Source: a gamma proteobacterium SCGC AAA007-O20 (GTDB taxonomy: Bacteria; Pseudomonadota; Gammaproteobacteria; PS1; Pseudothioglobaceae). From it: a DNA stretch of 64,000 nucleotides. The notes under the pieces are model-generated. The model had not been told where the DNA came from. It saw only the letters and a list, made by a program, of their open reading frames with translations, and did not search any database. This document shows, piece after piece, positions 27,226-51,446 of the stretch. Location: assembly GCA_000213395.2 (NCBI GenBank), contig AFHY01000003.1, positions 1 through 64,000 on the forward strand, given 5' to 3'. The position numbers were made by a program, and so were the translations under genes. Positions within the stretch are counted from its first letter, which is position 1; each line of letters starts with the position of its first letter.

Positions 27226-27227
27226 TT

Positions 27228-27521: not shown

Positions 27522-27522
27522 G

Positions 27523-30126: not shown

Positions 30127-30927
30127 TTAAGTTAAATTTTCTCTAGCCAGAGTTCTACCACCCTTCCAAGACACACCGACTTGGCGGTAATAGCCCTGAA
30201 TTAGTTCCTCAGGTTCGAGTAAATGAAACTCCTCAACAGGTGAGGAGAACAATTCAAGCTCAAAGGAACCTTTAAAGGTTAGGCCAATCTCAGCGTCAAA
30301 ACCTGACATTGTGACCACTTCATTCAAACTGTCTTTCCCATTGCATTCAATTGCAGGCATCCAACGGTTGTGAAGCATTGGTAAAGCATTGACAAAACCA
30401 GCATGATCTGATTCTGCCTCAATAGTGAACTTAGCTTGAACTAGGCGATGATCATAAGCTGCTAAAGTGGCTCCAAAAATACCCCCAGGCTGAAGTCGAG
30501 GTCCGGCTTTTCCTACAGTAGTTGACCTTGTTAAATGGATAGAACCAATTTTTTTCGGATAACCCTGAAATTGACCACGAGCAGCTGAAAAGTCCTTATC
30601 TACCCAAATATATATACAACGTGAGTAGATTTTTCCTTGATATTTACAACGAACAACAAAAAACACCTCTTTATATTGAGCACGTACAGGATCTAATAAT
30701 TCATTAAAGTTATCACTGCAGCTTTGCCAATCTGCCCAAATAACAGCAACAGCTCCGGGGTCTTCATCAGCTAACTCAATTCCATCAGGCAAGAGTTCAG
30801 CTACACGGTCAGGATTAGTTCGATATTCTAAGGTTAACAAGTCTCCCGAGTAGTGCCAAGGCACATTAGGAATTAATGACGAATTACCTGTGTGAGTTCT
30901 GGGAAAGAGAAAACCTTGTAAAGACAT
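30127..30927 (-). CDS. Acetoacetate decarboxylase-like protein
   Basis: 266 residues of the ADC superfamily. The Schiff-base lysine region is intact as QGYPKKIGSIHL near residue 123, and the LPDGIELADEDPG and EYRTNPDRVAELLP segments match the family. The family decarboxylates or rearranges 3-oxo acids via an enamine; many members are not acetoacetate decarboxylases. It shares a divergent promoter region with the FAH-P450 operon and precedes the MarR gene, so it probably acts on an intermediate of that pathway. Confidence 0.82.
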   Translation of the reverse strand: MSLQGFLFPRTHTGNSSLIPNVPWHYSGDLLTLEYRTNPDRVAELLPDGIELADEDPGAVAVIWADWQSCSDNFNELLDPVRAQYKEVFFVVRCKYQGKIYSRCIYIWVDKDFSAARGQFQGYPKKIGSIHLTRSTTVGKAGPRLQPGGIFGATLAAYDHRLVQAKFTIEAESDHAGFVNALPMLHNRWMPAIECNGKDSLNEVVTMSGFDAEIGLTFKGSFELELFSSPVEEFHLLEPEELIQGYYRQVGVSWKGGRTLARENLT

Positions 30928-32004: not shown

Positions 32005-33282
32005 ATGATCAAAACAGTTAGCCCAAATAACAATGACGATATCAATGCAGATATTACTAGTCACGATACTTTTGAAAAAGGCTTTCCACATTTGGCATTT
32101 AAACAGATGCGTGATGAAGACCCCTGTGCCTGGATAGATGAGACCGATGGTGGAAGCGGTTTCTGGTCAGTTAGCCGATATAAGGACATCAAAGAGGTTA
32201 ACGGTTTACCGAAAATTTTTAGCTCAGCTCAAGGAATTCGTCTAGAAGAGCAATCGAAAGAAGAATACGAGGCTCGCAAGACATTCCAAGAAACTGACCC
32301 ACCAGTCCATACCCGTCAACGAATGATGTTCCATCGTGGATTTACACGTAAACTAATCACAACCTATGAACCTATGATTCGTGATATTTGTAACGATATT
32401 ATTAATGAAGCGGTTGACTTGGGTGAAGTCGATGCCACTAAACAGATTGCTAGAAAATTACCAATGAGAATGTTGGGCCGTGTTGTTGGTACTCCAGATG
32501 AGGATGCAGAGTGGCTAGTTTCAAGAGGTGACTCAATGATTGCTAACAGTGACCCAGATTTTACAGACTATGTGATTGACAAGGTTGATACAGATGAATA
32601 TCGATTTTTGCCTTTTCGCTCCCCTGCTGGTAAGGAAATTTATGATTATGGAGAAAAACAAAAGAGGCTTCGTGAAGATCACGATATGGGTGATGTGATG
32701 TCAATGTTATTACAACCAAACAAGCAGGGCGACAAGCTATCAGACCTCGAATTTAAAAACTTCTTTGCACTCATGGTTGCTGCTGGAAATGATACAACCC
32801 GATATTCGATGGCATCTTCAATGCATGCTATAGCCAATAATCCCTATATTTTTGACTGCCTAAAATCTGCCCCTGATGATGCCCCAGTTTGGGCTAGCGC
32901 TACCGAAGAGTTTATCAGATGGGCTTCACCAACTATGCACTTTAGACGCACTGCAACGGAGGATTATGAACTTCATGGGAAGCAAATCAGAGAGGGAGAC
33001 AAAGTCGCTATTTGGTTTACTTCAGGAAATTACGATGAGCGCAAGTTTCTCGACCCATACAGTCTTATTTTAGAGAGAGAAAATAATCAACATATCGCTT
33101 TTGGTCAAGGTGGCCCTCATGCATGCTTGGGTATGTGGCTTGCAAGGCTAGAAGTTCGTGTGGCTATGCAGGAGTTACTTAAAAGGATTTCGAAAATTGA
33201 GCAAATCGGCCCCGAAAAATACTTACGCTCTAATTTTATTCGGGGAATAAAAAACTTGCCTGTTAAGTTAACATCAGCATAA
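32005..33282 (+). CDS. Cytochrome P450
   Basis: 425-residue soluble class I bacterial P450. Visible: I-helix AAGNDTTR near residue 260, the ExxR element EEFIRW, the HFRRTATEDYEL segment and the heme-cysteine loop FGQGGPHACLG near residue 370. ETDPPVHTRQRMMFHRGFT in the C-helix region is typical of the CYP108/111/125-like group that oxidises terpenoid, sterol or aromatic compounds. A [2Fe-2S] ferredoxin is encoded in the same operon at 36102; no ferredoxin reductase is. The substrate is unknown. Confidence 0.93.
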   Translation: MIKTVSPNNNDDINADITSHDTFEKGFPHLAFKQMRDEDPCAWIDETDGGSGFWSVSRYKDIKEVNGLPKIFSSAQGIRLEEQSKEEYEARKTFQETDPPVHTRQRMMFHRGFTRKLITTYEPMIRDICNDIINEAVDLGEVDATKQIARKLPMRMLGRVVGTPDEDAEWLVSRGDSMIANSDPDFTDYVIDKVDTDEYRFLPFRSPAGKEIYDYGEKQKRLREDHDMGDVMSMLLQPNKQGDKLSDLEFKNFFALMVAAGNDTTRYSMASSMHAIANNPYIFDCLKSAPDDAPVWASATEEFIRWASPTMHFRRTATEDYELHGKQIREGDKVAIWFTSGNYDERKFLDPYSLILERENNQHIAFGQGGPHACLGMWLARLEVRVAMQELLKRISKIEQIGPEKYLRSNFIRGIKNLPVKLTSA

Positions 33283-33314: not shown

Positions 33315-34601
33315 ATGAACAATTACAGAAGAGTTCGAGTACTATTTTCAGATCACTTGGGGTTAGCGAGAGGAAAATATCAACCTATAAATACTGCGGC
33401 TGGTGGTGAGGCAAGATTTTGTATTAGCCTTTACGGTCTTACCTATGATAAGCAGTTATTGCCAGTACCAGGTAGCGGCTTACTTGATGGATTGCCTGAT
33501 GTGGTTGCTAAATTCAAAGAAGAAGATGTTCGCCCTTCCTGGGAGGCTGACACGGGTGTCGTTATTCCAGATATTGAATTTAAAGGAGAACCGTTGGCAC
33601 ATTGTGGACGTAATGTATTGAAAAAGACAATAGCTCAGTTTGAAGGAATAGGTTTAACACCATATGTCGGAATAGAGCTAGAAGCCTATGTTTTTCAAAA
33701 GAATAGGTACGGCAAATGGGTTCCCTACGACACTCCAGGAGCCTACGTCTATGGTACTGGTTCAACAGTTGATCCTGCAGGTCTGATTGATGAGGTTTGG
33801 GAACAAGCTGAAGCTTGTGGTATTGAGCTAGAATCATTTAATTCAGAGTTTGATTCACCGCAATTTGAATTGACTCTAAAGTACGACAAGGCTTTGGAAG
33901 CGGTTGATCAGATATTCCTATTTAAAGCAATGGCAAAAGAGATTTTTGAACAGAATGGTTACTTATTAAGTTTTATGCCAAAACCTTTATCGAAAAATGG
34001 CGGAAGTGGAATGCACGTCAATTTTAGTTTCAATGACAAAAAAGGTAATAATGTCATTTATGATAAGTCTGCCAAAGATGGCTTGTCTGATATTGCAAAA
34101 AAATCGATTTCTGGTCTTGTACAGCACCATGAAGGTATGTCAGCTTTACTTGCGCCAACAGTTAATTCTTATCGAAGATTGTTGCCTGCAAGTCTTTCAG
34201 GATATTGGGCAAATTGGGGGTACGACCATCGAGGAGTGACAACTAGAATACCTGATGAACGTGGCGCAGGCACAAGAATTGAATTCAGAATGGCTGATTG
34301 CGCTGCAAATCCATATACTGCAGTTGCAACAGTTCTTCAAGCTGCTAAGTTGGGTATAGAGAATGACTATGAATTGCCTGACGCAGAAACTCTAGACTGC
34401 CTTGAATCTCAAAGCACAGATAGACATGTTCCAGATAACTTGGCTCTTGCCTTGGAGGCTTTAAATGCTGATAAAGATTTATGTCAAGCGGTAGGTCAAG
34501 AGCTGGTAGATAATCATACTGCTATCAAGGAGCAAGAGTGGCAAGACTATTCTGCTCATACAACAGATTGGGAATTTGACCAATACCTGAAATATATTTA
34601 G
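33315..34601 (+). CDS. Glutamine synthetase-like ligase (gamma-glutamylamide synthetase type)
   Basis: 428 residues with the GS catalytic fold: GIELEAYVF, FNSEFDSPQFELTL, GGSGMHVNFSF, NSYRRLLPASLSGYWANWGYD and GTRIEFRMADCAANPYTAV. The N-terminal beta-grasp domain is short. Relatives outside nitrogen assimilation ligate glutamate to amines (PuuA, isopropylamine IpuC, aniline AtdA1/TdnQ). A start with AAAGGAG ahead of ATG is well placed. In aniline clusters such a ligase pairs with a class-I amidotransferase; a candidate partner is at 37446. I infer that an amine substrate or intermediate is gamma-glutamylated here. Confidence 0.85.
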   Translation: MNNYRRVRVLFSDHLGLARGKYQPINTAAGGEARFCISLYGLTYDKQLLPVPGSGLLDGLPDVVAKFKEEDVRPSWEADTGVVIPDIEFKGEPLAHCGRNVLKKTIAQFEGIGLTPYVGIELEAYVFQKNRYGKWVPYDTPGAYVYGTGSTVDPAGLIDEVWEQAEACGIELESFNSEFDSPQFELTLKYDKALEAVDQIFLFKAMAKEIFEQNGYLLSFMPKPLSKNGGSGMHVNFSFNDKKGNNVIYDKSAKDGLSDIAKKSISGLVQHHEGMSALLAPTVNSYRRLLPASLSGYWANWGYDHRGVTTRIPDERGAGTRIEFRMADCAANPYTAVATVLQAAKLGIENDYELPDAETLDCLESQSTDRHVPDNLALALEALNADKDLCQAVGQELVDNHTAIKEQEWQDYSAHTTDWEFDQYLKYI

Positions 34602-34610: not shown

Positions 34611-36074
34611 ATGTCAAATAGAATTTCTATAAAAGGCGTTGAGGTTTCTACGGATCACTATATTAATGGAAAGCGAGTTTCGTCTGATAAAAAATTTACC
34701 GTCATCAATCCAAATAACCCTAGCGAGGTTCTCGCCGAAGTCTCAAGAGGTGATGCGGAAATAGCTAAACTTGCAGTTTCTGCTGCCCGAGAAGGGTTTA
34801 ATATTTGGTCAGAAATGAGTGTTGATGAACGTGCATCGATTATGCACAGACTAGCTGATCTCATCGAGTCTAATATCGACAATATTTCTCTTATTGAGTG
34901 CTTGGATATGGGTATGCGCCATGAAAGTCTAAGAAACCGTGTCATTCCAAGGGGCGCTAGAAATTTTCGTTCATATGCAGATATAGCTAAAGAATATAAA
35001 CCAAGGAAATGGCATTCAAATACTACCAAGAATGAAATTCAACGTATGCCTAGCGGAATTAGTGTCATTATTACTCCCTGGAATGCTCCATTTATGTTGT
35101 CTACATGGAAATGTGCACCCGCCCTCGCTGCAGGCAATAGTGTAATTTTGAAGCCAGCTGAATGGTCACCATTGTCTGCATCATTGTTGGGTGATTTGAT
35201 TGATGAAGCAGGTTTTCCAGCTGGAGTTTTTAATATTGTCCAGGGTATTGGTGAAGAAGTTGGAGCGATACTAGTATCAGACTCAAATGTGAATCGTGTT
35301 TCATTTACCGGTTCCCCTGAGGCGGCACGCCATATTGGTAAATCAGCTGCTGAAAATATCACCCCATTCACTGGTGAGTTAGGTGGAAAAAGTCCATTAA
35401 TCATTTTTCCAGATGCAGATCTAGAAGTGGCTGTTGCAAAGGCGGTAGGTCAGTTTGATGATTCTGGTCAGATTTGTCTTGCGGGAACTAGATTACTAGT
35501 GCATTCATCCATAAAAAATGAATTTTTAAATCGCTTCTTAGAACTAACTGCCAAACAAAAACTAGGTCCAAGTTTTGATGACGAAACTGAAATTACCCCG
35601 ATGATCCACCCTGAGCACCTTCAAAGTGTTGCTGGTTTTGTTGACCGAGCTAGAATCAACGGAGACAAGATTCTGTGCGGTGGAAAGGTATTAAAAAATG
35701 GCAAGTTGTGGTACGAACCAACTTTAATCGAGCCTGTTTCTAATCAATCTGAAGTGGTTCAAAAAGAAATTTTTGGTCCAGTTTTGACACTTCAAACATT
35801 TAACACTGAATCAGAAGCAATCGAGTTGGCAAACAGTACTGAATATGGTCTTGCCGGAATGCTCTATACCAAGAATCGCGACATCGCTGAACGAGTTGGA
35901 CGTGCAATTCGCGCAGGCACGGTTTGGGTTAACTGTTTTCTTATTCGTGACCTGACAGCACCATTCGGTGGTTTTGGTCTGAGTGGTATTGGACGAGAAG
36001 GTGGTGATTATGGAATTGATTTTCATAGTGACTTAAAAACCTTTCAAATACTTGATGATTCTTTATCTGAGTAG
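34611..36074 (+). CDS. Aldehyde dehydrogenase, HpaE-like
   Basis: 487-residue NAD(P)-dependent aldehyde dehydrogenase. Visible: TPWNAPFMLSTWKCAPALAAGN, FTGSPEAARHIG, the catalytic-base motif GELGGKSP, catalytic Cys in DDSGQICLAGTRL, EIFGPVLTLQTF and PFGGFGLSGIGREGG. The segments RVIPRGARNFRSYAD and VNCFLIRDLTAPFGG line up with HpaE (5-carboxymethyl-2-hydroxymuconate-semialdehyde dehydrogenase) better than with general aldehyde dehydrogenases. It would oxidise the semialdehyde left by ring cleavage by the HpaD-like enzyme at 36449. It lies 9 bases after the GS-like gene. Confidence 0.9.
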   Translation: MSNRISIKGVEVSTDHYINGKRVSSDKKFTVINPNNPSEVLAEVSRGDAEIAKLAVSAAREGFNIWSEMSVDERASIMHRLADLIESNIDNISLIECLDMGMRHESLRNRVIPRGARNFRSYADIAKEYKPRKWHSNTTKNEIQRMPSGISVIITPWNAPFMLSTWKCAPALAAGNSVILKPAEWSPLSASLLGDLIDEAGFPAGVFNIVQGIGEEVGAILVSDSNVNRVSFTGSPEAARHIGKSAAENITPFTGELGGKSPLIIFPDADLEVAVAKAVGQFDDSGQICLAGTRLLVHSSIKNEFLNRFLELTAKQKLGPSFDDETEITPMIHPEHLQSVAGFVDRARINGDKILCGGKVLKNGKLWYEPTLIEPVSNQSEVVQKEIFGPVLTLQTFNTESEAIELANSTEYGLAGMLYTKNRDIAERVGRAIRAGTVWVNCFLIRDLTAPFGGFGLSGIGREGGDYGIDFHSDLKTFQILDDSLSE

Positions 36075-36101: not shown

Positions 36102-36431
36102 ATGACAACCGTTAAATATATATTGGAAGATGGCTCTGAAGTCTTGATTGAAGCAGATGTAGGGCAAAATTTAATGCAATTGGCCCTTGATAATAATCTT
36201 GCTGGTATTGAGGGTGCTTGTGGTGGCTCCTGTATGTGTGGTACTTGCCACGTTCTAATTGAATCAGTTAAAGGAAAGCAGCTTGAAGAAAGAGATGAAA
36301 TGGAAACAGTAATAATAGAAATGGAAATCGATGAGCTTGCTCCGATTAATAGTCGCTTGGGATGTCAGATTACTATACAAGAAGGAATGGAGTCAATCAC
36401 GGCACGTATAGCCAATCTCAGTAATTTCTAA
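36102..36431 (+). CDS. [2Fe-2S] ferredoxin, putidaredoxin type
   Basis: 109 residues. Cluster cysteines in GACGGSCMCGTCHVLIE and the fourth in SRLGCQI follow the adrenodoxin/putidaredoxin spacing, with one extra Cys between the first two ligands. Last gene of the operon with the P450, so the likely electron donor to it. It converges with the HpaD-like gene. Confidence 0.93.
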   Translation: MTTVKYILEDGSEVLIEADVGQNLMQLALDNNLAGIEGACGGSCMCGTCHVLIESVKGKQLEERDEMETVIIEMEIDELAPINSRLGCQITIQEGMESITARIANLSNF

Positions 36432-36448: not shown

Positions 36449-37321
36449 TTAAGTCCAACCCTCAACAGGTTGATCAAACCAAAGATGAACTTGTCCTGTT
36501 CCTGTGGCGTTTTCGTAGTCACCAAACTGGCGACCTTTAGCTCGACAATTCACTCCACCAATAGCTTCTGCCATAATTAAATAATGTCCAAATTTACCCT
36601 CTGGAGAGTATTTATTATATTCATCCATTCCATCAAATACAGAGCGATGATCACCTTTTTTTAACCAATCAATTCGCTTCTCATCAGCTTTCCTTGCCCC
36701 TGATGTAATGATGTGAATAGGGTCAGAAGCTTCGTGTTTCTCGAGTTCATCAAGTGGCCAAAATCTATGACTTAATCCTCCACTAGCTAATATCACTACA
36801 CGCTTATCAGATTCCTCTATGGCTGCTTTCAAGCCCCTACCAACCTTCATAAAATGCTCTTTCTTAGCAGTACCACAAATACTCATAGAAAGCCACTGTT
36901 CATTACCTTGGAGATACTCAAGCAAATTAACAGTTGGATAATGTATTGGTAGGTGTTCATTGTCATTGGCAGAGCAACGCACCCCATTTTCATTGACACG
37001 CTCTACAATATTATTTGCTAATTCTGGGTTGCCAGTTATATCGAACGGAATGCTGTTCATTGTCCGAGGCAACTCCTCCGATGTATAAAAACCTTGACGC
37101 CTTTGATGGCTGGTGACAATGAACTCAACAATCGTAAACCAATGCGTGTCAATAACAATAACAACATCGGGATTGAGTGGCTCTAAGATTTCACGTCGCA
37201 TATCTTGAAAACCTGTCACTAACGAGATTTCTTTACCTTCATTTAGAGCATACCGCTGCTCTTTAGTCATCATGATTGTCGGCGCATGGGATACTAATCC
37301 AACCCCTACTATTTCACCCAA
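36449..37321 (-). CDS. Class III extradiol ring-cleavage dioxygenase (HpaD/HpcB-like)
   Basis: 290 residues of the LigB superfamily. Motifs shared with E. coli homoprotocatechuate 2,3-dioxygenase HpcB: VSHAPT with the first metal His, VIDTHW, GFYTSEELP, GNPELA, VILASGGLSHRFW and ATGTGQVHLWF. It would open a catechol-type ring next to a hydroxyl using Fe(II) and oxygen. Single gene transcribed toward the P450 operon, with a perfect TTCGTATACGAA palindrome 67 bases upstream. With the HpaE- and HpaG-like genes it forms the core of a meta-cleavage pathway. The true ring substrate is not known. Confidence 0.88.
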   Translation of the reverse strand: MGEIVGVGLVSHAPTIMMTKEQRYALNEGKEISLVTGFQDMRREILEPLNPDVVIVIDTHWFTIVEFIVTSHQRRQGFYTSEELPRTMNSIPFDITGNPELANNIVERVNENGVRCSANDNEHLPIHYPTVNLLEYLQGNEQWLSMSICGTAKKEHFMKVGRGLKAAIEESDKRVVILASGGLSHRFWPLDELEKHEASDPIHIITSGARKADEKRIDWLKKGDHRSVFDGMDEYNKYSPEGKFGHYLIMAEAIGGVNCRAKGRQFGDYENATGTGQVHLWFDQPVEGWT

Positions 37322-37445: not shown

Positions 37446-38165
37446 CTAAGAATAAAAAAACTCCATAATCCACTGAGCCCAGATACTTGAATCAGACTTA
37501 CCATTTTCAATACGCAGCTTAGCATTTTCAAGTTCTTTTTCGGTTAGCACATTTTTAGTAACTTCAAGAAAGTTATACATAGCGCGTTTTGGTTGTTCTG
37601 GATGCCCCTGAAGACAAGCGATATTATTGCCAAGAGTATAAGCAAAATCTGGATAGTCTTTAGTGCTAGCAAAACTTATTGCGCCTTCAGGTAATTTAGT
37701 GACTCTCTCTTTATTAAAATGATATAGGTCAGTAGTATCTAATGTATTCTTCATCCAAGGAAATTTTTTTTTGATTTCTAAAGGGAAGCTCCCTATCATC
37801 CAGCCTTTTTCGTTATTACCAACAACACCGCCAAAATACTTTGCAATGAGTTGATGACCGAAACATACCCCGACGATTGGTTTATTTTTATTGTCTGCCT
37901 GGCCCACAAACTCCGAAAGCATTTTGATCCAATCATGATTATCATGCACACTAACTGGGCTTCCTGTCAACAAGTAACCATCATAACTCTCAATATTGTC
38001 AGGAAACTCGTACTCCGAAACATAAAAAATATCAAATTTTGCATTGACATTTTCAGGCGCTAGTAAGTCAACAAATTTCTGGCCATCAGTAACACCATTG
38101 TCATCACGCCAATGAAATTTTGGCACTGAGTCAAGTATCGCAATTTTAATTGGCTGCTCGTTCAT
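37446..38165 (-). CDS. Class-I glutamine amidotransferase-like protein
   Basis: 239 residues with the triad GATase fold: nucleophile in GVCFGHQLIAKYFGG near residue 99, and HPEQP near the C-terminus. It is a stand-alone domain with no synthetase partner. Its ATG directly follows the sulfatase stop. Such proteins can hydrolyse gamma-glutamyl amides (PuuD/PauD roles; AtdA2 in aniline clusters). In this context it could remove the glutamyl group added by the ligase at 33315. That pairing is inference. Confidence 0.82.
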   Translation of the reverse strand: MNEQPIKIAILDSVPKFHWRDDNGVTDGQKFVDLLAPENVNAKFDIFYVSEYEFPDNIESYDGYLLTGSPVSVHDNHDWIKMLSEFVGQADNKNKPIVGVCFGHQLIAKYFGGVVGNNEKGWMIGSFPLEIKKKFPWMKNTLDTTDLYHFNKERVTKLPEGAISFASTKDYPDFAYTLGNNIACLQGHPEQPKRAMYNFLEVTKNVLTEKELENAKLRIENGKSDSSIWAQWIMEFFYS

Positions 38166-39731
38166 CTACCATCTACCAATAATAATGCCTGCCTTCTCGT
38201 CTGCTTCAGGCGAGCGTTTATAAAGTTCATCTAAATGAACCACGGTTCTTTGCTTTCTTTGTCTTAGCCATGTAAATAATTGCTTTTCAAAGTCAGCTAA
38301 ACGCTCAGATTGGTCTTGATTTTCAGCTAAATCATTGAACTCATTAGGGTCGTTCAACAAGTCAAACAATTGTGCTCGGAAGCCTTCCCAATAAATATAC
38401 TTCCATTGAGTATTTTTTATCATGTAGCCTCGACACTTATAAGGGTGATGGTCAAGAATTTGTCTGGCACCACGATCGCTATAATCTATTTCGGCAAAAA
38501 CTGTATCACGCCAAGTTGGATTATCACCAAAAAGCAATGGAACAAGTGATCGACCCTCCATTCTATTAGATGCATATGAGCCTCCCATCGTTTCGACAAG
38601 GGTCGGCACTACATCAACGGATTCAATCATTCTATTTTCAGTAGATCCACGAAGATTTTCTGGCATTTCAGGCTCAACAATAATTAATGGAATGCGAATA
38701 GAAGGCTCATGAAATAAGTCCTTCTCACCAAGCCAATGATCACCAAGATAGTCACCATGATCACTGGTAAAAATAATTAAAGTATTTCTACTTAAATTAT
38801 TTTCATCCAAAAATTTTATAAGTCTACCAATATGATGGTCAATTTCACTTATTAAGCCCATATAGGTCGGAATTACGTGTCTACGTTTTTCCTCATCAGT
38901 GTAGTTTCGAGAATATTCAAGTTGCTGAAAAGCAGAAAAGACGGGGTGAGGATTTTTCATCTCGATCTTATCCTTAACAACCCCTATAACATCACTGTCT
39001 TTATACATTTTGTGGTACGGCGAGGGAGCAAGCAAAGGCCAATGAGGATTGAAGTAGCTCAAATGCAAACACCATGGCGTATCCTTATTTCGAGTAGAAA
39101 TATACTCCATTGCCCGATTAGTTAAAAAAGCTGTTTCTGAATGCTGTGCTTCGATATCTGAAGGCAAATGAGCATTTCTCATTTCCCATCCACTATATTT
39201 CAAACCGGATTTAGTGGCCGTATTGGCTGCGTTTTCCCAAGGATTATGCATCTCATAGCCTTGAGACAATAAATAATCGTTATAACCAACTCCATCATGG
39301 ACAATTGGCTCTGGATATAAACCTCCATAATGCTCAAAAGGGGTAAAACCATTGTCATGACGATTTAAAGCTATTTCAGAATCTAGTGGTATCTTTAAAC
39401 GTGACAAGCTTTCTTCATTAGGACGGCCTTCACTTTTACCTACAACATGCGCTTCGCAACCCAACTCACGCATGTAATCGCCTAAGGTAACTTCGTCCAC
39501 TTTTATTGGGTCATCATTAGCCATCACCCCATGGCTAGTCATATAACGACCTGTATAAAAACTTGCCCTGCTAGGACCACAGAGAGAGGCATTACAATAA
39601 CTATTCTCAAACAACATACCTCGACTGGCAAGCATATCAATATTTGGTGTTTTTAAGCTGGAATGGCCAGTACAACCAAGATAGTCATGCCTTAGCTGGT
39701 CACACATAATAAATAAGATATTTTTAGTCAT
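38166..39731 (-). CDS. Sulfatase / phosphonate monoester hydrolase-family enzyme
   Basis: 521 residues of the alkaline phosphatase superfamily. FIMCDQLRHDYLG at the start carries metal ligands. CGPSRASFYTGR (Cys near residue 51) is the C-x-P-S-R motif whose cysteine becomes formylglycine. IIFTSDHGDYLGDH supplies further ligands. The segments LHLSYFNPHWPLLAPSPYHKMY and GLISEIDHHIGRLIKFLDE resemble the arylsulfatase/phosphonate monoester hydrolase group. No signal peptide is seen, so it is probably cytoplasmic and acts after uptake by the adjacent Tct transporter. An activating formylglycine enzyme is not in the window. Confidence 0.87.
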   Translation of the reverse strand: MTKNILFIMCDQLRHDYLGCTGHSSLKTPNIDMLASRGMLFENSYCNASLCGPSRASFYTGRYMTSHGVMANDDPIKVDEVTLGDYMRELGCEAHVVGKSEGRPNEESLSRLKIPLDSEIALNRHDNGFTPFEHYGGLYPEPIVHDGVGYNDYLLSQGYEMHNPWENAANTATKSGLKYSGWEMRNAHLPSDIEAQHSETAFLTNRAMEYISTRNKDTPWCLHLSYFNPHWPLLAPSPYHKMYKDSDVIGVVKDKIEMKNPHPVFSAFQQLEYSRNYTDEEKRRHVIPTYMGLISEIDHHIGRLIKFLDENNLSRNTLIIFTSDHGDYLGDHWLGEKDLFHEPSIRIPLIIVEPEMPENLRGSTENRMIESVDVVPTLVETMGGSYASNRMEGRSLVPLLFGDNPTWRDTVFAEIDYSDRGARQILDHHPYKCRGYMIKNTQWKYIYWEGFRAQLFDLLNDPNEFNDLAENQDQSERLADFEKQLFTWLRQRKQRTVVHLDELYKRSPEADEKAGIIIGRW

Positions 39732-39745: not shown

Positions 39746-41227
39746 TTAGTTAGTTTTCCTTCTGTATTGGCGCCATATTGACCAAAAATGAATTAATAGT
39801 GCTATCACAATTATCGCAAAAATTGTGCCTGATATGGGTCTATTTATATAGTCAAACAGAGTATCGATACGTGCCTGACTGGCACGAAACCTTTGTTCCA
39901 TAATAGTGCCTAATACCATTCCAAGAATGATGGGCACAATAGGTAAATTAAGTCTCTTTAAAGCGTAACCAAATATACCAAAAACTGCACACATTATGCA
40001 ATCAATCATAGAATTTCGTAGCGTATAAACACCAACAAAAGAGAGACCCAAAATTGAGACACCTAAAAAACGCTGTGGTATCTGAATTATTTTGAGTAGG
40101 TACTTTGTAGCAAAAAGCAAGAAAATCATCACAATAATATTAATTACAATTAAACTTTCATATAGTCCATACACAAAATCAAGATGTCTTACAAACAAAT
40201 CTGGACCCGGAATGATGTTGTGAACATAAAAAACTGACAGCATCATTGCGGTTAAAGCTTCGCCAGGAATACCGAGTGCTAAAAGTGGAATCATGGCTGC
40301 AGCTGGAACGGCATTGTTGGCAGCTTCAGAGGCGATAATGCCTTCTGGAGCCCCTTTACCAAATCTCTCAGGTTTGTCAGAAATGCCTCTGGCTATATTG
40401 TAAGAAAAAAATTGTGCTAAGAACTCACCTACACCAGGAATAATTCCCATTATCACTCCCATCGCTGAGGAAATGAGCGCAACAGTTTTATATTTAATTA
40501 GATCGAAAAAGCCTTCACTTTTTTTACCTTTTAAACTAGGCATTGACACTCGTCTATCGTTACCAATAAGTAGTATGAAAGCTTGAGAAACTGCAAATAA
40601 ACCGAGCAATACGGTAATTAAATCAAAACCTGATAAGAGCCACGATTGGTCAAAAGTAAATCGCTTTGAATATTTGACACTTTCCATTCCGATAGTACTT
40701 ATAAACATTCCAAAGAAAACTAGCATTCCAGCTATTAAGGTTTGTTTTCTATGTGAAATAACAACCAATACCAATCCCAACAAGGCTGCCATTAGTATAT
40801 CCCTAGAGCCAAATAGTGGGGCCACCTTGGCTATTAAAGATGTCATAAAAATGAGAGCTATGATTGAGAAAATACCGCCAGTAAATGAAGACCAATAAGC
40901 CAGAGTGATTGCTCGCCTTGCTTTATTGTCTTTCGTCATGCTGTAACCATCATAAGTAGTCAATGCATTGACAGGTGTACCAGGAGTATTAATCAAAATT
41001 GCAGGAATCGCACCACCATACATTGCAGAACCATAAATACCCAATAGCACAGTAATACCAATAATTGGGTCCATACTGTAGGTTGCAGGGAGCAAAATAG
41101 CAATCGCCACGGCTGGTCCGACGCCTGGAATCGCGCCTATAATCACTCCACCTATTGAACCAACTAATATAGCTACCCAGACATCCCATCGAAGGAATAT
41201 GTCAAAACTTGAAAGAATTAATTCCAT
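39746..41227 (-). CDS. tctA: Tripartite tricarboxylate transporter, large permease TctA
   Basis: 493-residue inner-membrane protein with about twelve segments. Conserved motifs: GGVIIGAIPGVGPAVAIAILLP near the N-terminus, YGSAMYGGAIPAILINTPGTP, and GIIPGVGEFLAQFFSYNIAR. It takes the substrate from the periplasmic binding protein TctC using an ion gradient. Encoded downstream of tctC and tctB and followed after 14 bases by the sulfatase. TTT systems import many carboxylates; the substrate here is unknown. Confidence 0.92.
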   Translation of the reverse strand: MELILSSFDIFLRWDVWVAILVGSIGGVIIGAIPGVGPAVAIAILLPATYSMDPIIGITVLLGIYGSAMYGGAIPAILINTPGTPVNALTTYDGYSMTKDNKARRAITLAYWSSFTGGIFSIIALIFMTSLIAKVAPLFGSRDILMAALLGLVLVVISHRKQTLIAGMLVFFGMFISTIGMESVKYSKRFTFDQSWLLSGFDLITVLLGLFAVSQAFILLIGNDRRVSMPSLKGKKSEGFFDLIKYKTVALISSAMGVIMGIIPGVGEFLAQFFSYNIARGISDKPERFGKGAPEGIIASEAANNAVPAAAMIPLLALGIPGEALTAMMLSVFYVHNIIPGPDLFVRHLDFVYGLYESLIVINIIVMIFLLFATKYLLKIIQIPQRFLGVSILGLSFVGVYTLRNSMIDCIMCAVFGIFGYALKRLNLPIVPIILGMVLGTIMEQRFRASQARIDTLFDYINRPISGTIFAIIVIALLIHFWSIWRQYRRKTN

Positions 41228-41236: not shown

Positions 41237-41764
41237 TCAAAAATAAATCATAAAAAATGTTGCCCAGCCATCTGGAAGATAATCATAAATTGCACCACTG
41301 GCTATCTTCACTTGTAACAAAGATTTAAATACAATCACAATTCCAAATCCCGTTGCCAAACTAACCCAGAACATTAAAAGAGTTCGATAACCTGCCCTAA
41401 TGGTTAGTAGCGAGAAAAACAATAAGGTTGAAAGTAAATAGCCTGCTAAAGGAACAGACCAAACATACAATACAAAATAAAAAACAAACTCTAAAGGCCT
41501 TAACCAGGATGATAATTCATTCAATTCACCCTGAACCTGGCCTAGTTGAATTTTATAGCTTCGCCAAATCTGAATACTATAAAGCAAACCAAAAAGAGCC
41601 ATTCCGACTAAACAAAATGTGGGCCAAAGTCTTGGCTGTTTAACTAATGGGACGCCATCAAACCACTTTGTTTCAAAGGGAATTGATACCAGTAAAACCA
41701 GTACAATAAACAACATCAGCATTGCAAAGACTAAATCACCTGCTTGATATTCTTCTCTACCCAT
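41237..41764 (-). CDS. tctB: Tripartite tricarboxylate transporter, small permease TctB
   Basis: 175 residues with four hydrophobic segments, as expected for TctB. Sequence is poorly conserved in this family, so the call rests on size, topology, the RLWPTFCLVGMALFG pattern and its place between tctC and tctA (9 bases from tctA). Confidence 0.85.
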   Translation of the reverse strand: MGREEYQAGDLVFAMLMLFIVLVLLVSIPFETKWFDGVPLVKQPRLWPTFCLVGMALFGLLYSIQIWRSYKIQLGQVQGELNELSSWLRPLEFVFYFVLYVWSVPLAGYLLSTLLFFSLLTIRAGYRTLLMFWVSLATGFGIVIVFKSLLQVKIASGAIYDYLPDGWATFFMIYF

Positions 41765-41853: not shown

Positions 41854-42792
41854 CTAAAGACCGGCAATAGTAGCCATGGTCGCCCTGTCTTTATTGATTT
41901 GTGCAGTTGAAGCATCAGCATCCATCCAGTAGATTAATGCACCGCTGTTGGCCGCAACTTCTTGCGCCCTATCACTTAGCATTGATCTCTTGGCAACAGC
42001 AGTAATCTTATCTTTAACATCCTGTGGTGTGCCTGCTCCGACAAATAAGCCGTTCCATAAAAATATGTCTAACTCAGGTATCAATTCACCAATTGTTGGT
42101 GTGTTCGGTACCTTAGAAATACGCTCATTTGTTATAGAAACTAAAACTTTAACGTCATTTAAGCATGGCAGGATTAGCTGAATCGTTGTATTAATAACGT
42201 CTGCATCACCTGAAGCTAAAGTATTACAGTCCAACATATCAAAGGCAGCATCTGAACCCCATTCGAAGCCCATTATCTTAGCTGCAGCTTTGGTCACCTG
42301 GGTTGGTGCCAGTGGGTCACCAAAGTGACCTAGCGTTACTTTGTTACTTTTAGCATGATAAGCTAATTGATGTAGTGAACTATATGGAGCATCGCCTGCT
42401 ACAGCTATCACAAATGGATAGGTTAGAAAAATCCCTAGAGGCTCAAAAGTTTCTTTAGTTAAACCCTCTATTCCAATTTCTGGTCCTACAACCGGTACAC
42501 CGATTACAAATGAACCTACCATGGAACCATCAGGATCTGCCGCCGCTACTTCCATTGCACCTGGGAATGGACCACCGCCACCACCTGGTTTATTAACAAC
42601 CGCTGCAGCAACACCATATTCAGCCTGAAAGTCTTCCGCAATCATTCTAGTTAAAACATCTTCAAGATCCCCAGGAGGCCATGGAACAACAAAAGTCACA
42701 GGTTTATCAGGATAATCAGCCTGTGCAATTGGCATACCTACCATAAAAGTTGAAAGTGCAAATAACACTCCAATAAAAATTTTATTCATCAT
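41854..42792 (-). CDS. tctC: Tripartite tricarboxylate transporter substrate-binding protein TctC (Bug family)
   Basis: 312-residue periplasmic binding protein. Signal peptide of about 25 residues ending IAQADYPDKPVTFVVPWPPG, the usual mature N-terminus of the family; NKPGGGGGPFPGAMEVAAADPDG follows. GGAG is the start site with AAGGAGA ahead of ATGATG. The DNA ahead of the gene holds a palindromic operator and an unusual nested inverted repeat. First gene of the tctCBA-sulfatase-amidotransferase operon. Confidence 0.92.
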   Translation of the reverse strand: MMNKIFIGVLFALSTFMVGMPIAQADYPDKPVTFVVPWPPGDLEDVLTRMIAEDFQAEYGVAAAVVNKPGGGGGPFPGAMEVAAADPDGSMVGSFVIGVPVVGPEIGIEGLTKETFEPLGIFLTYPFVIAVAGDAPYSSLHQLAYHAKSNKVTLGHFGDPLAPTQVTKAAAKIMGFEWGSDAAFDMLDCNTLASGDADVINTTIQLILPCLNDVKVLVSITNERISKVPNTPTIGELIPELDIFLWNGLFVGAGTPQDVKDKITAVAKRSMLSDRAQEVAANSGALIYWMDADASTAQINKDRATMATIAGL

Positions 42793-42893: not shown

Positions 42894-42904
42894 CGTATAC
42901 GAAC
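42891..42904. promoter_or_regulatory. Palindromic operator candidate upstream of tctC (site 4)
   Basis: Perfect palindrome GTTCGTATACGAAC, 99 bases upstream of the tctC start, the same 14-mer as at 37388. Its left edge overlaps the outer arm of the nested repeat. Confidence 0.7.
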
Positions 42905-42977: not shown

Positions 42978-44084
42978 TCAAGAACGTGATCTAACTCTCT
43001 CAGGGTCATAAACTGGAGTTGCCACGATTTCTGCCTGACCATCGCTTTCCATACTTAGATCTAGTCTATTACCCACTGACGAGTTTTCCCGATTGATTCG
43101 AGCTAATCCAAGAAATTGTCCGTCTAGGTAAGGCGAAGGAATTGCCATTGTAACTATACCTACCTTCTTGTTATTGTCCATTAATTCGACGCCATCGTAT
43201 TCACCTTCCCCCGGCAATATAACACTAACGATATTTAATGAAGGGTTTTTCTGTGCTTCGATTAGAGCATCCTTTCCATGAAAATTATCCTTGTTAAGAT
43301 CAACTGACCAAGCCATTCGGCATTCGTAAGGGGTCATCGTATGATCATATTCGACTTCACCCATAATCAAGCCAGCTTCGATACGACACATCATTACGCA
43401 AGCAGCTCCAGCTGGTAATAAACCAAGTGGCTCTCCTACTTTAAAAAGAGCATCCCAGAATGCTTGCGCACTATCGACAGGTAGCATGATTTCATAACCA
43501 AGTTCACCAGTGTAACCGATTCGGCTAATTTGAACTTTCATGCCGGCCATATCGACATCAGTAATGAAATGATACCAACGAAGCGCATCATTACTTATAT
43601 CGCTACTTGTTAGTTTTTGTAATATTTCTCTGCTTAAAGGCCCTTGAACTGAGAGCTGAGCAAGTTCATCACAACGCTCACTAATGGTGACATTATTTGT
43701 ACGATAATGATCCAGTAAATCACCAACTATTGGATTTGCTCCAATAATTCGAACAAGTTCGGGACCGTATACAAAAACCGTGCAATCATCGACCATTTTG
43801 CCTGCTTCACTAACGACGACACCGTAGGCAATAGTTCCCGGTTTCATCTCACTTATATCGCGCGAAAATATATTATTCACGGTTTGTATTGCTCCCGCGC
43901 CTTCTACGTCCCATTTGAGAAGCATAGAAAATTCAAACGCTGCAGCTTGATTCCGAACTGCTGCACATTCAACATTAGGATCACCCCAGGTTAATGGGAC
44001 TGCATAACCGAATATATCAATCCATTCGACAACTCCATCAGGATAGGATGATGAAAATGGGGTTTGTTTTAATTCATCTGACAT
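42978..44084 (-). CDS. GcvT/DmdA-like folate-dependent aminomethyltransferase-family protein
   Basis: 368 residues of the GcvT fold. Visible: FEFSMLLKWDVEGAGA, YGVVVSEAGKMVDDCTVF with the catalytic-type Asp, LSVQGPLSREIL, ISRIGYTGELGYEIMLP and PAGAACVMMCRIEAGLIMGEVEYD. Relatives move a methylene or methyl group to tetrahydrofolate (T-protein, DMSP demethylase DmdA, the tails of dimethylglycine dehydrogenases). It lies 12 bases after the TMADH-like flavoprotein gene, so the pair probably demethylates one compound, with this protein capturing the C1 unit. Which methyl compound is not readable. Confidence 0.85.
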   Translation of the reverse strand: MSDELKQTPFSSSYPDGVVEWIDIFGYAVPLTWGDPNVECAAVRNQAAAFEFSMLLKWDVEGAGAIQTVNNIFSRDISEMKPGTIAYGVVVSEAGKMVDDCTVFVYGPELVRIIGANPIVGDLLDHYRTNNVTISERCDELAQLSVQGPLSREILQKLTSSDISNDALRWYHFITDVDMAGMKVQISRIGYTGELGYEIMLPVDSAQAFWDALFKVGEPLGLLPAGAACVMMCRIEAGLIMGEVEYDHTMTPYECRMAWSVDLNKDNFHGKDALIEAQKNPSLNIVSVILPGEGEYDGVELMDNNKKVGIVTMAIPSPYLDGQFLGLARINRENSSVGNRLDLSMESDGQAEIVATPVYDPERVRSRS

Positions 44085-44096
44085 AGCAAATTCCTC

Positions 44097-46250
44097 TTAA
44101 TGATATGGTTTAACCTTTATCACCTCAGCATCAAGCTGATAATCCTTTTCTGTCGCATTTATGAGACGACGTTCACGAATGAAAGGCTTATGTTGGTCGG
44201 GATTATCTGAATCAAATTCCCTTGCAAGACGAGTTCCAGAAAAAGTTGCCTGTGCAATTACGTTTGGCGTGTGAGCGTCACCGATTAAATGTATAGACTT
44301 AATTCCAGCATTGGACATTTCATCAGGCGACCCTTGTAGTTGATCATATAAATCGCAATTAGAAGTTCTGTGCGTGACTAACATAATACTATCGTATTCG
44401 ACAGTCATTTCCTCACCTTTCCATATATCCACAAGAGTTGCATTTCCGTTTTCAACAGCTACTGCGACATGCTGATGAATCGTTGTAACACCGAGCTCAA
44501 GAAGTCGCATTAACATTCGTTGCTCTTCTAAAACCAGACGGAGGTAAGGGCCAACGGTTTCTCCATAAGTAGCGTATGTTACTTCATGGCCATTTTCTGC
44601 AATAAGTTCCGCCATAGCAGAACCCATATAATAAGGATCATTGTCGATTACTAATACTCGTTTTCCGAGTTTTTTCCCATGTACACAATACTGTTCTGGA
44701 TTACAAATTTCCGGCTTTGAAGCGTCAGCACCAGCTATATAATCATGAAGTAGTGATGACATACCCGTTTCGTCCCAGTTAGAACCGGTTGCGAAAACAA
44801 TGCGCTCAGCTCCACATTCAAGAACATCTTGATAATTAAGCCGATTATTCAAGATAATTTGTACATTGGTTTTTGTTCTAATTTGCGTTTCCCGCCAATC
44901 AATAACACGCTTCCAAGCCCCAAAATTAGGCAGTTTAGAAACCCAACGTAAATGACCACCTATTTCAGCTTCAGCTTCAATTAGATGGACAGTATTATAG
45001 CCACGAAGACCGAGAGTCATCGCACACTCAAGTCCAGCAGGGCCTGCCCCAACAACAACAATTGGTAGATCAGGATTTTTTGTTGGAATATATTTTTCAG
45101 GATGCCATCCCCTACGATATTCTTCACCAGAAGTTGGATTCTGAGTGCACCAAATCGGCGGCCCACCTTTTTCCCATCGAGAAACACAAATATTGCAACC
45201 AATACATTCTCGGATATCATTGTATCGACCTTCCTCTATTTTTTTTGGCAGAAATGGGTCGGCAATAGATGGACGAGCTGCCCCAATAATATCGCACTGA
45301 CCTGAATTTATTGCTTTAATCATAACTTCCGGATCTGTAAAGCGACCAACATTTATAACTGGTTTTTTAGAGGCTTTTTTTGCATGTTGGGTATACTGGG
45401 CTTGATGATTTGAATCAAAGAACCGTGAAGATCCTGCATCCTCTCCCCAGTTTAGGGTGCCAATATTTATATCCCAATAATCAACCAGATCGTCCATTGC
45501 CTTGATGAAAGCTACGCCCTCATCTTCAGCTTTTGTTCCCAAATCTCCAAGACCAAAAGGTTCAGGCAAGGTATCAATTGGAAAACGTATTCCAATTGCA
45601 CAGTCATCAATTTCTTCTCTCATCATCTCTAACAATTCTCGAGTAAAACGACATCGGTTTTCAAAGGAACCACCATATTCGTCAGTACGTTTGTTGTGAG
45701 AACGGTACAAGAAATGCTGAGGTATTGTCGCGAGACCAACGAAAAGAGTCAGCAAATCAAAACCTGCTGCCCTTGCTCTTAAAGCTCCATCCACATGTTC
45801 ACGTTGTATTTGTCGAATTTCTTTAATTGTCATCGCCCTTGCACTTGCCATAGGTTCAAATTCATGTGGTATTTGTGAGGCTGCTCGAGCTGGTTCACGG
45901 GTTTCTGCATTGAAGCCAAAGGAAGTGGCATGAGTAAGCTCCACACCAGCAAGGCCACCATGAGCATGGATACTATCGCACATCAAGGATAAATTCCTAA
46001 CGTCACCTTCATCAATAATTTTACTTCCAACCCATGGATGAATATCACTATCATGTGTTATAAAACAAACTTCCGTAAAAACTGCCCCCCAACCACCTTC
46101 AGCTTTCATTCCTCGAAAAGATGCCTGCATTCCTGGTTTATCTGATCCAGCTCCATTACAGTGAGGTACTTGCCAGAATCGGTTTTTAAGGGTTTTTGGT
46201 CCAAGTTTGATTGGTTCAAAAAGAATATCGTGACGTTTTTCTCTAGCCAT
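44097..46250 (-). CDS. Trimethylamine dehydrogenase-like iron-sulfur flavoprotein
   Basis: 717 residues with the full TMADH architecture. An FMN barrel (to about residue 350) carries the cysteinyl-FMN motif QVPHCNGAGSDKPG at Cys31. A [4Fe-4S] site CIGCNICVSRW...C has Cys spacing 2-2-12, identical to TMADH. Nucleotide-binding domains follow (VVVGAGPAGLECAMTLG). By eye against Methylophilus TMADH, substrate-site residues differ: Tyr60 corresponds to Val61, and the Tyr169/His172 segment reads FVGLA, while the Trp and Asp of WGEDAG and the Trp of SRWEKGG are kept. A different N-methyl substrate is likely. Divergent from the TetR regulator. Confidence 0.88.
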   Translation of the reverse strand: MAREKRHDILFEPIKLGPKTLKNRFWQVPHCNGAGSDKPGMQASFRGMKAEGGWGAVFTEVCFITHDSDIHPWVGSKIIDEGDVRNLSLMCDSIHAHGGLAGVELTHATSFGFNAETREPARAASQIPHEFEPMASARAMTIKEIRQIQREHVDGALRARAAGFDLLTLFVGLATIPQHFLYRSHNKRTDEYGGSFENRCRFTRELLEMMREEIDDCAIGIRFPIDTLPEPFGLGDLGTKAEDEGVAFIKAMDDLVDYWDINIGTLNWGEDAGSSRFFDSNHQAQYTQHAKKASKKPVINVGRFTDPEVMIKAINSGQCDIIGAARPSIADPFLPKKIEEGRYNDIRECIGCNICVSRWEKGGPPIWCTQNPTSGEEYRRGWHPEKYIPTKNPDLPIVVVGAGPAGLECAMTLGLRGYNTVHLIEAEAEIGGHLRWVSKLPNFGAWKRVIDWRETQIRTKTNVQIILNNRLNYQDVLECGAERIVFATGSNWDETGMSSLLHDYIAGADASKPEICNPEQYCVHGKKLGKRVLVIDNDPYYMGSAMAELIAENGHEVTYATYGETVGPYLRLVLEEQRMLMRLLELGVTTIHQHVAVAVENGNATLVDIWKGEEMTVEYDSIMLVTHRTSNCDLYDQLQGSPDEMSNAGIKSIHLIGDAHTPNVIAQATFSGTRLAREFDSDNPDQHKPFIRERRLINATEKDYQLDAEVIKVKPYH

Positions 46251-46284
46251 AATAGTATCTCATAAAAAAAATTTAAGTCATTTG

Positions 46285-46300
46285 ACCGTCAATTGACGGT
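46285..46300. promoter_or_regulatory. Perfect 16-bp palindrome, likely TetR operator
   Basis: ACCGTCAATTGACGGT lies 34 bases upstream of the TMADH-like start and 97 upstream of the TetR start. A second imperfect repeat, GTAGTAATATACTAC, sits at 46306-46320. The position fits autoregulation and repression of the divergent TMADH-like/gcvT-like operon by the TetR protein. Confidence 0.7.
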
Positions 46301-46397: not shown

Positions 46398-47042
46398 ATG
46401 ACCAATCAACAATACGACTCACTGGAAAATATTTCGCCAAGGAAGTTAAAACGAAAAAGTTCGAAAAAACGCAACTTGGAGATACTGGAGGCGACAAGGG
46501 TGCTGCTTTCGGAAAAGGGCTATGATAAGCTTAGTTTGCGAAAGATAGCAGTCATCACAGGAATCCACTTAAAGACGCTTCAACACTACTTTCCTACCAA
46601 AGAGATCCTAATAAAGTCGACATTAGAATATGTGATTTCTTTGTATGACAAAAAAGTTCAGGAGATCTCAACACATTCGAGTGACCCTGAAAAAAACTTT
46701 AAAAACTACGTTAAATACTTAATTGAAGACACCAAAAATATTCAGACAGCTGGATTTTTCTATCAACTCTGGGCAATGTCATATGTTGATGAGAAGACTA
46801 ATAATATAATGAATAAAATGTATCTTGACCACACAAATAATATTGAAAACTTAATAGAAACACTTAATCCAGATATGGGTAATCATATGCGAAAACATCG
46901 TGCCGTGATGATTGCAGCATTAATTGAAGGAATGATGTTATTTGTGGGTTATGGGAAAAAACGTCCTAAAAATACAGCTCATATAGAAAAAGAAATTGTT
47001 GCACTTTGCACTAATCTTGCTGTATCTAATAATTCGCTGTAA
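46398..47042 (+). CDS. TetR-family transcriptional regulator
   Basis: 214 residues. The N-terminal helix-turn-helix reads ATRVLLSEKGYDKLSLRKIAVITGIHLKTLQHYFPTKE (about residues 32-70) and follows a basic stretch (KLKRKSSKKR). The ligand-binding C-terminal domain is helical. It is divergent from the TMADH-like gene across a perfect palindrome, so it is the probable local regulator of that operon. Confidence 0.9.
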   Translation: MTNQQYDSLENISPRKLKRKSSKKRNLEILEATRVLLSEKGYDKLSLRKIAVITGIHLKTLQHYFPTKEILIKSTLEYVISLYDKKVQEISTHSSDPEKNFKNYVKYLIEDTKNIQTAGFFYQLWAMSYVDEKTNNIMNKMYLDHTNNIENLIETLNPDMGNHMRKHRAVMIAALIEGMMLFVGYGKKRPKNTAHIEKEIVALCTNLAVSNNSL

Positions 47043-50304: not shown

Positions 50305-50393
50305 AAACTATTTATTTTTATATTATTAATAATGAATAAAAAGTTAATACGATAAAAAATATTATAATTTGAATTTTAACATAAATGTAGTTA

Positions 50394-50423: not shown

Positions 50424-50436
50424 AGAGACATATATT

Positions 50437-51408: not shown

Positions 51409-51446
51409 CCTTTGTGATTATTTCTTTTAGTATTTAGACTATCCAA

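What the first reader, a model, noticed from the sequence alone, without database searches (positions are those of the whole stretch)
42978..46300. TMADH-like enzyme with altered substrate pocket paired with a GcvT-like protein: possible new demethylase
FMN-cysteine and [4Fe-4S] ligands are kept, but positions aligned by eye with TMADH Tyr60, Tyr169 and His172 are Val, Phe and Leu, so trimethylamine is unlikely to be the substrate. Coupling to a GcvT/DmdA-like protein, as in the fused dimethylglycine dehydrogenases, suggests transfer of the methyl carbon to folate. A TetR regulator and palindrome make it a self-contained inducible unit.
Basis: partly seen in the sequence, partly recalled or inferred. 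Interest (0 to 1): 0.7.

Follow-up and report, generated by a model that had tools for sequence, protein, structure and literature searches.

The report
Folate-coupled demethylase for aromatic amines
A marine sulfur-oxidising bacterium carries a relative of trimethylamine dehydrogenase with a reshaped substrate pocket, paired with a folate-binding protein inside a gene cluster that looks built to strip methyl groups off aromatic amines and then break the ring, an activity that I found assigned to no member of this enzyme branch.

Summary
Window 44097-46250(-) encodes a TMADH-family flavoprotein (49% identical to Methylophilus TMADH), 42978-44084(-) a GcvT-like protein. TMADH Tyr60, Tyr169 and His172 are Val, Phe and Leu; FMN-Cys30, the cluster cysteines, Trp264, Trp355 and Asp267 are kept. 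Y60V/I, H172L, Y174T/N and loss of W105 are fixed in a 16-member clade apart from true TMADH; Y169F is not (Tyr in five). GcvT sits beside the enzyme across three phyla, the two co-diverge (r=0.93), and purU/folD often follow: good evidence that the methyl carbon goes to folate. Corrections: (1) The unit is not self-contained but the demethylation arm of a cluster with GS-like, P450, amidotransferase, ALDH, HpaD- and HpaG-like genes and a transporter, mirrored in Aeromicrobium; the likely substrate is an N-methylated aromatic amine (N-methyltyramine/hordenine type as examples). (2) GcvT is dispensable: two Thioglobus strains deleted it with different breakpoints while the flavoprotein stayed under purifying selection. 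(3) Genuine TMADHs also sit beside sister GcvTs. New variant of a known kind; substrate untested.

The parts
44097..46250 (-). TMADH-like iron-sulfur flavoprotein (proposed N-demethylating dehydrogenase)
42978..44084 (-). GcvT-like aminomethyltransferase (proposed folate acceptor partner)
46398..47042 (+). TetR/BetI-like regulator, divergent; absent in relatives L039 and L040
46285..46300 (.). Perfect 16-bp palindrome, likely TetR operator; conserved in L049 and as variants in L041
42891..42904 (.). Second operator-like palindrome GTTCGTATACGAAC upstream of tctC; conserved in L039, L040, L049
37388..37401 (.). Second copy of GTTCGTATACGAAC, upstream of the HpaD-like gene
41854..42792 (-). TctC solute-binding protein of a tripartite tricarboxylate-type transporter
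41237..41764 (-). TctB-like small membrane subunit
   Evidence: position and conserved order with TctC/TctA (no profile search run)
39746..41227 (-). TctA-like large membrane subunit
   Evidence: position and conserved order (no profile search run)
38166..39731 (-). Sulfatase-family hydrolase with CGPSR formylglycine-type motif
37446..38165 (-). Class I glutamine amidotransferase-like protein (gamma-glutamyl hydrolase role proposed)
   Evidence: gamma-glutamyl hydrolase family genes in the related clusters
36449..37321 (-). LigB-family extradiol dioxygenase, nearest HpaD
36102..36431 (+). 2Fe-2S ferredoxin
34611..36074 (+). Aldehyde dehydrogenase, nearest HpaE
33315..34601 (+). Glutamine-synthetase-like (gamma-glutamyl-amide ligase role proposed)
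32005..33282 (+). Cytochrome P450
31088..31978 (+). Fumarylacetoacetate hydrolase family, near HpaG C-terminal part
30127..30927 (-). Acetoacetate-decarboxylase-fold (MppR-like) protein
29566..30099 (-). MarR-family regulator, nearest HpaR

Best explanation
The pair is a two-protein oxidative N-demethylase. The TMADH-like enzyme (covalent FMN, 4Fe-4S) oxidises an N-methyl group of a secondary or tertiary amine to the iminium; the GcvT-like partner hands that carbon to tetrahydrofolate as methylene-THF, limiting formaldehyde release. Without GcvT the iminium hydrolyses to formaldehyde, as for TMADH. The pocket keeps two of the three aromatic-bowl residues (Trp264, Trp355) but replaces Tyr60, Trp105, His172 and Tyr174 with smaller side chains, fitting a larger N-substituent than methyl. 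The cluster (transporter, sulfatase, GS-like, P450/ferredoxin, ALDH, amidotransferase-like hydrolase, HpaD/E/G-like genes, HpaR-like regulator) indicates that the demethylated product is an aromatic amine, for example tyramine from N-methyltyramine or hordenine. Shown: genes, residues, clade, linkage, gcvT losses. Inferred: reaction, folate coupling, substrate class. Speculative: the named substrates.
For: Family, cofactor residues and fold. Clade with Y60V/I, H172L, Y174T/N and W105 lost in 16/16, apart from true TMADH with SH-aLRT 99-100. GcvT adjacent in every clade locus read outside two Thioglobus strains; these GcvTs form one clade (support 100), mirror-tree r=0.93 over 14 pairs (shared ancestry contributes to r). 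GcvT keeps Asp96, Glu195, Tyr83. purU follows GcvT in Gemmobacter; purU+folD in Aeromicrobium, Kineosporia and S. canus; purU beside it in a Solirubrobacterales MAG. Aeromicrobium has one run: TMADH-like, GcvT, PurU, FolD, APC permease, P450-like, MarR, gamma-glutamyl hydrolase, ALDH, MppR-like, HpaE-, HpaD-, FAH-, GS-like, P450. An Acidobacteriota MAG has sulfatase, TctABC, HpaD-like, TMADH-like, GcvT and P450 at 43-74% identity. Alphaproteobacterial members carry a gentisate-dioxygenase-like ring-cleavage set. Family precedent: 6l6j (HisD) is listed as a 6-hydroxypseudooxynicotine amine oxidase; that substrate is an aryl-alkyl N-methylamine (my knowledge).
Against: No assay. Two Thioglobus strains keep the flavoprotein (dN/dS 0.06-0.16) without gcvT. 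GcvT Arg227 and Tyr100 are replaced as in Tdm, whose authors read this as impaired THF binding (PMC12560246); but DMGO, which uses THF, also lacks both. In S. canus a GcvT of this clade sits in the aromatic cluster with no gene annotated or matched as TMADH-like in the 32 kb read, so GcvT may serve other oxidases. HpaD-, HpaE- and HpaG-like proteins score well under NCBIfam cut-offs, so the ring substrate need not be homoprotocatechuate. The Novosphingobium aromatic cluster lacks TMADH-like and GcvT genes.
Confidence: 0.58

Rival explanations
1. The flavoprotein is an oxidative deaminase, as histamine dehydrogenase and HisD are, cutting the amine off an aromatic side chain; GcvT independently handles C1 units or demethylates something else.
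For: Histamine dehydrogenase and HisD are in the same family. S. canus has the GcvT without a TMADH-like gene nearby. gcvT was lost twice without the flavoprotein.
Against: Consistent adjacency and co-divergence of the pair; the clade is nearer TMADH than HADH/HisD and keeps the Trp355 loop that HADH and HisD lack; GS/ALDH/gamma-glutamyl hydrolase would already supply a deamination route.
Confidence: 0.17
2. The substrate is a small methylated osmolyte-type amine (dimethylglycine, sarcosine, N-methyl amino acid) and the aromatic genes are neighbours by chance.
For: TetR is nearest BetI (well below cut-off); marine setting; GcvT fusions act on dimethylglycine in DMGO.
Against: The aromatic genes recur with the pair in Aeromicrobium, an Acidobacteriota MAG and Thioglobus; Alphaproteobacteria have another ring-cleavage set instead. 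The changed pocket positions are V/L/T, giving no obvious carboxylate partner.
Confidence: 0.12
3. GcvT is a stand-alone methyltransferase like DmdA or LigM that moves an intact methyl group (methyl-THF), and the flavoprotein acts elsewhere in the pathway.
For: GcvT-fold demethylases DmdA, LigM and DesA exist and match weakly.
Against: Profile scores favour GcvT/Tdm over DmdA (204-223 versus 97 bits) and far over LigM/DesA. FolD and PurU in the operons fit methylene-THF, not methyl-THF.
Confidence: 0.07
4. It is still a tri- or dimethylamine dehydrogenase despite the pocket changes.
For: 49% identity to TMADH; Trp264, Trp355, Asp267 kept; genuine TMADHs also lie beside GcvTs.
Against: Tyr60 and His172 replaced in all 16 clade members; a separate true TMADH (72% identical to Methylophilus) exists in Thioglobus genome G017; positions Val344 and Tyr442 (ETF contacts, from memory) are Glu and Arg.
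Confidence: 0.06

Closest known systems
Trimethylamine dehydrogenase (Methylophilus, 1djn/2tmd)
   Same: Fold, 6-S-cysteinyl-FMN Cys, 4Fe-4S Cys, Trp264, Trp355, Asp267; 49% identity
   Different: Tyr60, Trp105, His172, Tyr174 replaced clade-wide; positions Val344/Tyr442 are Glu/Arg; separate clade; embedded in an aromatic-amine cluster
HisD, 6-hydroxypseudooxynicotine amine oxidase (6l6j)
   Same: Same family; acts on an aryl-alkyl N-methylamine (by its name)
   Different: 38% identity; Ala at the FMN Cys position; lacks the Trp355 loop; keeps Tyr169/His172
Histamine dehydrogenase (3k30, 6de6)
   Same: Same family; aromatic amine substrate; same Glu/Arg at positions 344/442
   Different: 41-42% identity; Gln at Tyr60, Tyr169/His172 kept; no GcvT partner seen beside the plasmid members of that group that were read
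N,N-dimethylglycine oxidase (1pj5) and TMAO demethylase Tdm (9q5a)
   Same: GcvT-fold module coupled to demethylation; Asp and Glu of the folate site kept
   Different: There fused to an unrelated oxidase or DUF1989 domain; here a separate protein with a TMADH-type partner
Homoprotocatechuate meta-cleavage pathway (HpaD, HpaE, HpaG, HpaR)
   Same: Nearest or near families of four cluster genes
   Different: All score below NCBIfam cut-offs; HpaD-like protein is about 28% identical to plasmid-borne HpaD

Membership tests
TMADH-type iron-sulfur flavoprotein family | OYE-like FMN barrel plus 4Fe-4S and nucleotide-fold domains | tested here: met
TMADH-type iron-sulfur flavoprotein family | FMN-linking Cys30 and four cluster Cys | tested here: met
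Trimethylamine dehydrogenase proper | Aromatic bowl Tyr60/Trp264/Trp355 | tested here: not met
   Tyr60 is Val/Ile in 16/16; both Trp kept
Trimethylamine dehydrogenase proper | Tyr169/His172/Asp267 triad | tested here: not met
   His172 is Leu in 16/16; Asp267 kept; Tyr169 variable
Trimethylamine dehydrogenase proper | Groups with verified TMADH in a tree | tested here: not met
   separate clades, SH-aLRT 99-100
Trimethylamine dehydrogenase proper | Oxidises trimethylamine | not testable with these tools
   no assay
Histamine dehydrogenase / HisD | Groups with the solved enzymes in a tree | tested here: not met
   other side of a branch with SH-aLRT 100
Dimethylamine dehydrogenase | Groups with the Hyphomicrobium enzyme | not tested
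Stachydrine/N-methylproline or dimethylglycine (DgcA) demethylases | Groups with the characterised enzymes | not tested
   no named reference; a member beside a Rieske protein and an MttB-like gene (L093) falls in another clade
Glycine cleavage T-protein (GcvT) | Arg227 and equivalog score | tested here: not met
   Val at Arg227; 164 versus cut-off 236 bits
DmdA | NCBIfam equivalog score | tested here: not met
   96.8 versus cut-off 410 bits
Folate-binding GcvT-fold proteins of the DMGO type | Asp96/Asp552-type and Glu195/Glu658-type residues kept | tested here: met
   (residue roles from general knowledge)
Folate-binding GcvT-fold proteins of the DMGO type | Transfers C1 to tetrahydrofolate | not testable with these tools
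   no assay; purU/folD context only
Homoprotocatechuate dioxygenase HpaD | NCBIfam equivalog score | tested here: not met
   138 versus 316 bits

The most novel reading that the evidence does not exclude
A TMADH-type flavoprotein and a separate GcvT-type folate protein form a demethylation module older than the split between TMADH and this clade; the clade has turned it to N-methylated aromatic amines, and the module is traded between ring-cleavage clusters (homoprotocatechuate-like and gentisate-like) across at least three phyla, including open-ocean SUP05-group bacteria.
Probability: 0.45. Interest if true: 0.65.

Novelty: new variant of a known kind. Interest (0 to 1): 0.5.

Why it matters
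If right, it assigns a function to an unnamed branch of a classic flavoenzyme family, shows folate capture of the methyl carbon by a separate partner in TMADH-type enzymes (including genuine TMADHs, usually described as releasing formaldehyde), and gives SUP05-group bacteria, known for sulfur oxidation, a route to methylated aromatic nitrogen compounds. Natural gcvT losses offer a built-in comparison of coupled and uncoupled demethylation.

Tried and rejected
Homarine or trigonelline degradation: dropped as a lead; the one paper read reports that Mgd, not a TMADH-type enzyme, takes part in homarine catabolism, and the key paper is not held. Relocation of gcvT elsewhere in the gcvT-less genomes: best other hits are only about 33% identical and Tdm-like in the tree, though those genomes are 82-95% complete. 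Literature searches for hordenine or N-methyltyramine catabolic genes and for TMADH-GcvT coupling found nothing relevant. Glutamine-synthetase-like and P450 PDB searches did not identify the substrate. ORF calling on high-GC loci was too noisy and was replaced by tblastn with annotated proteins. A search of 274 gammaproteobacterial genomes found no further GcvT of this clade: sparse, probably horizontally moved. The predicted model gave no residue-level pocket comparison because coordinates could not be read.
Full report
What is there. The window belongs to a Candidatus Thioglobus-group gammaproteobacterium (nearest named relatives: REDSEA-S12, ALOHA and SAG AG-464-B02 records). On the minus strand, 44097-46250 encodes a 717-aa TMADH-family protein and 42978-44084 a 368-aa GcvT-like protein, 12 bp apart; a TetR gene (46398-47042) is divergent. 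The best PDB match of the first is TMADH (E 1.2e-209), and an AlphaFold2 model (pLDDT 79.9) aligns to 2tmd with Z 48.9 over 682 residues, then to HisD, histamine dehydrogenase and OYE-type reductases.

Residues. In a table over 54 family members plus four solved references, the window's clade of 16 has Val/Ile at 60, Leu at 172, Thr/Asn at 174 and Thr/Val/Cys/Ala at 105 without exception, and keeps Cys30, Trp264, Asp267, Trp355 and the cluster cysteines. Position 169 is Phe in 11 and Tyr in 5, including two Thioglobus proteins 95% identical to the window's, so it says little about the substrate. Val344 and Tyr442, which I recall as ETF electron-transfer positions of TMADH, are Glu and Arg in the clade, as in HADH and HisD. 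Enzymes that are 72-83% identical to Methylophilus TMADH keep the TMADH pocket residues and form their own clade (SH-aLRT 100).

The partner. The GcvT-like protein scores best with the C-terminal part of TMAO demethylase (223 bits) and GcvT (204), far less with DmdA (97). Partners of the clade form a single GcvT clade (support 100) and pairwise distances track those of the flavoproteins (r=0.93, 14 pairs), which shared organismal ancestry explains in part. Asp96, Glu195 and Tyr83 of T. maritima GcvT are kept, Arg227 and Tyr100 are not. The same two losses in Tdm were read as impaired THF binding (PMC12560246), but dimethylglycine oxidase, which uses THF, has Phe and Ala there in the phmmer alignment, so the argument does not carry. 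Genomic context favours folate: purU follows GcvT in Gemmobacter, purU plus folD in Aeromicrobium, Kineosporia and Streptomyces canus, and purU lies beside the pair in a Solirubrobacterales MAG. That is the route methylene-THF to formyl-THF to formate.

Not unique to this clade. Genuine TMADHs lie next to GcvTs in Azoarcus, Paraburkholderia phymatum and a Thioglobus genome, and near one after the ETF genes in Paracoccus aminovorans. Those GcvTs fall in the sister group of the clade's GcvTs (support 85). The plainest reading is that the pairing predates the split. No GcvT was seen beside the HADH-side members that were read.

Natural loss. Two relatives have the flavoprotein at 98% and 95% identity but no gcvT. 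In L039 only about the last 18 codons remain after the flavoprotein's stop; in L040 only about the first 30 codons (29 codons matched). Different remnants mean two deletions. Flavoprotein dN/dS is 0.06-0.16 in all comparisons, including between these two strains, so the enzyme is still selected. TetR is also missing in both, with a near-identical junction. GcvT is therefore helpful, not required. One record is a single-cell and the other a metagenome assembly; read mapping would secure the junctions.

The wider cluster. The pair is followed by TctCBA, a sulfatase-family gene with a CGPSR motif, a glutamine-amidotransferase-like gene, a LigB dioxygenase nearest HpaD, and an oppositely oriented set of ferredoxin, ALDH (nearest HpaE), GS-like, P450 and FAH (near HpaG) genes, with an MppR-like gene and an HpaR-like MarR gene beyond. 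All Hpa-like scores are under the equivalog cut-offs. A palindrome GTTCGTATACGAAC stands exactly in both internal gaps (37388, 42891), recurs in all four Thioglobus strains (one copy with one mismatch in L039 and in L049), and with one mismatch 90 bp upstream of the GcvT-TMADH pair of an Acidimicrobiaceae MAG, but in none of thirteen control loci. So at least two operators, probably two regulators, act, and the unit is not self-contained.

Is the neighbourhood chance? It does not look so. Aeromicrobium sp. Root344 has TMADH-like, GcvT, PurU, FolD, permease, P450-like, MarR, gamma-glutamyl hydrolase, ALDH, MppR-like, HpaE-, HpaD-, FAH- and GS-like genes and another P450 in one run. An Acidobacteriota MAG has sulfatase, TctABC, HpaD-like, TMADH-like, GcvT and P450. 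The HpaD-like gene at 48% identity or more occurs in 5 of 11 clade genomes tested. The same aromatic set occurs without the pair in Novosphingobium and S. lunaelactis, and alphaproteobacterial pairs sit with a gentisate-dioxygenase-like set and a permease or transporter instead. The pair thus behaves like a peripheral, exchangeable demethylation arm feeding ring-cleavage clusters that may handle an amine through gamma-glutamyl intermediates.

Mechanism and confidence. Shown: genes, residues, clades, linkage, losses, operator-like repeats. Inferred from family knowledge: N-methyl oxidation to an iminium by FMN; transfer to THF by GcvT; hydrolysis to formaldehyde without it. Inferred from context: an aromatic amine product, hence an N-methylated aromatic amine substrate; N-methyltyramine or hordenine are examples only. 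Smaller residues at 60, 105 and 174 with both tryptophans kept fit a bulkier N-substituent. HisD is a family precedent for an aryl-alkyl N-methylamine. Quaternary betaines are unlikely since TMADH-type chemistry needs an amine lone pair (not tested).

Verdict. It is a new variant of a known kind: a TMADH-family clade without a characterised member known to me, with a co-evolving folate partner. No assay, no characterised DMADH, DgcA or StcD sequence, and no literature on these genes was available here.

Noticed in passing
L014 (Thioglobus genome G017, contig C21), L089, L096, L088: Genuine TMADHs (72-83% identical to Methylophilus TMADH) lie beside or near GcvT-family genes, in Azoarcus and Paracoccus also with ETF and Fe-S protein genes; usually TMADH is described as releasing free formaldehyde.
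   Followed up: partly
L039 12152-12210 and L040 12152-12270: Remnants of gcvT with different breakpoints: two independent deletions in close Thioglobus relatives that keep the flavoprotein.
   Followed up: yes
window 37388-37401 and 42891-42904; L047 8773 and 16786: Palindrome GTTCGTATACGAAC shared, with one mismatch, between Thioglobus and an Acidimicrobiaceae MAG upstream of the same genes; its regulator is unknown (MarR is a candidate).
   Followed up: partly
G000:C164:77534-79558 (13.5 kb past the window end): A second TMADH-family gene (39% identical, Glu at Tyr60, Tyr/His kept) on the same contig; this type is widespread in the genus and its function is open.
   Followed up: no
window 49636-52649: Glutarate dioxygenase GlaH (over cut-off) and L-2-hydroxyglutarate oxidase (over cut-off) with an FCD-type GntR regulator: a glutarate catabolic unit in a SUP05-group bacterium.
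   Followed up: no
own genome G000, several contigs: Seven GcvT-domain matches over the Pfam cut-off in a 1.03-Mb, 61% complete genome, suggesting heavy use of methylated compounds.
   Followed up: no
L085 (Streptomyces canus plasmid, 8487-28235): A GcvT of this clade with purU, folD and the aromatic-amine module but no TMADH-like gene in the 32 kb read; another oxidase may replace it.
   Followed up: partly
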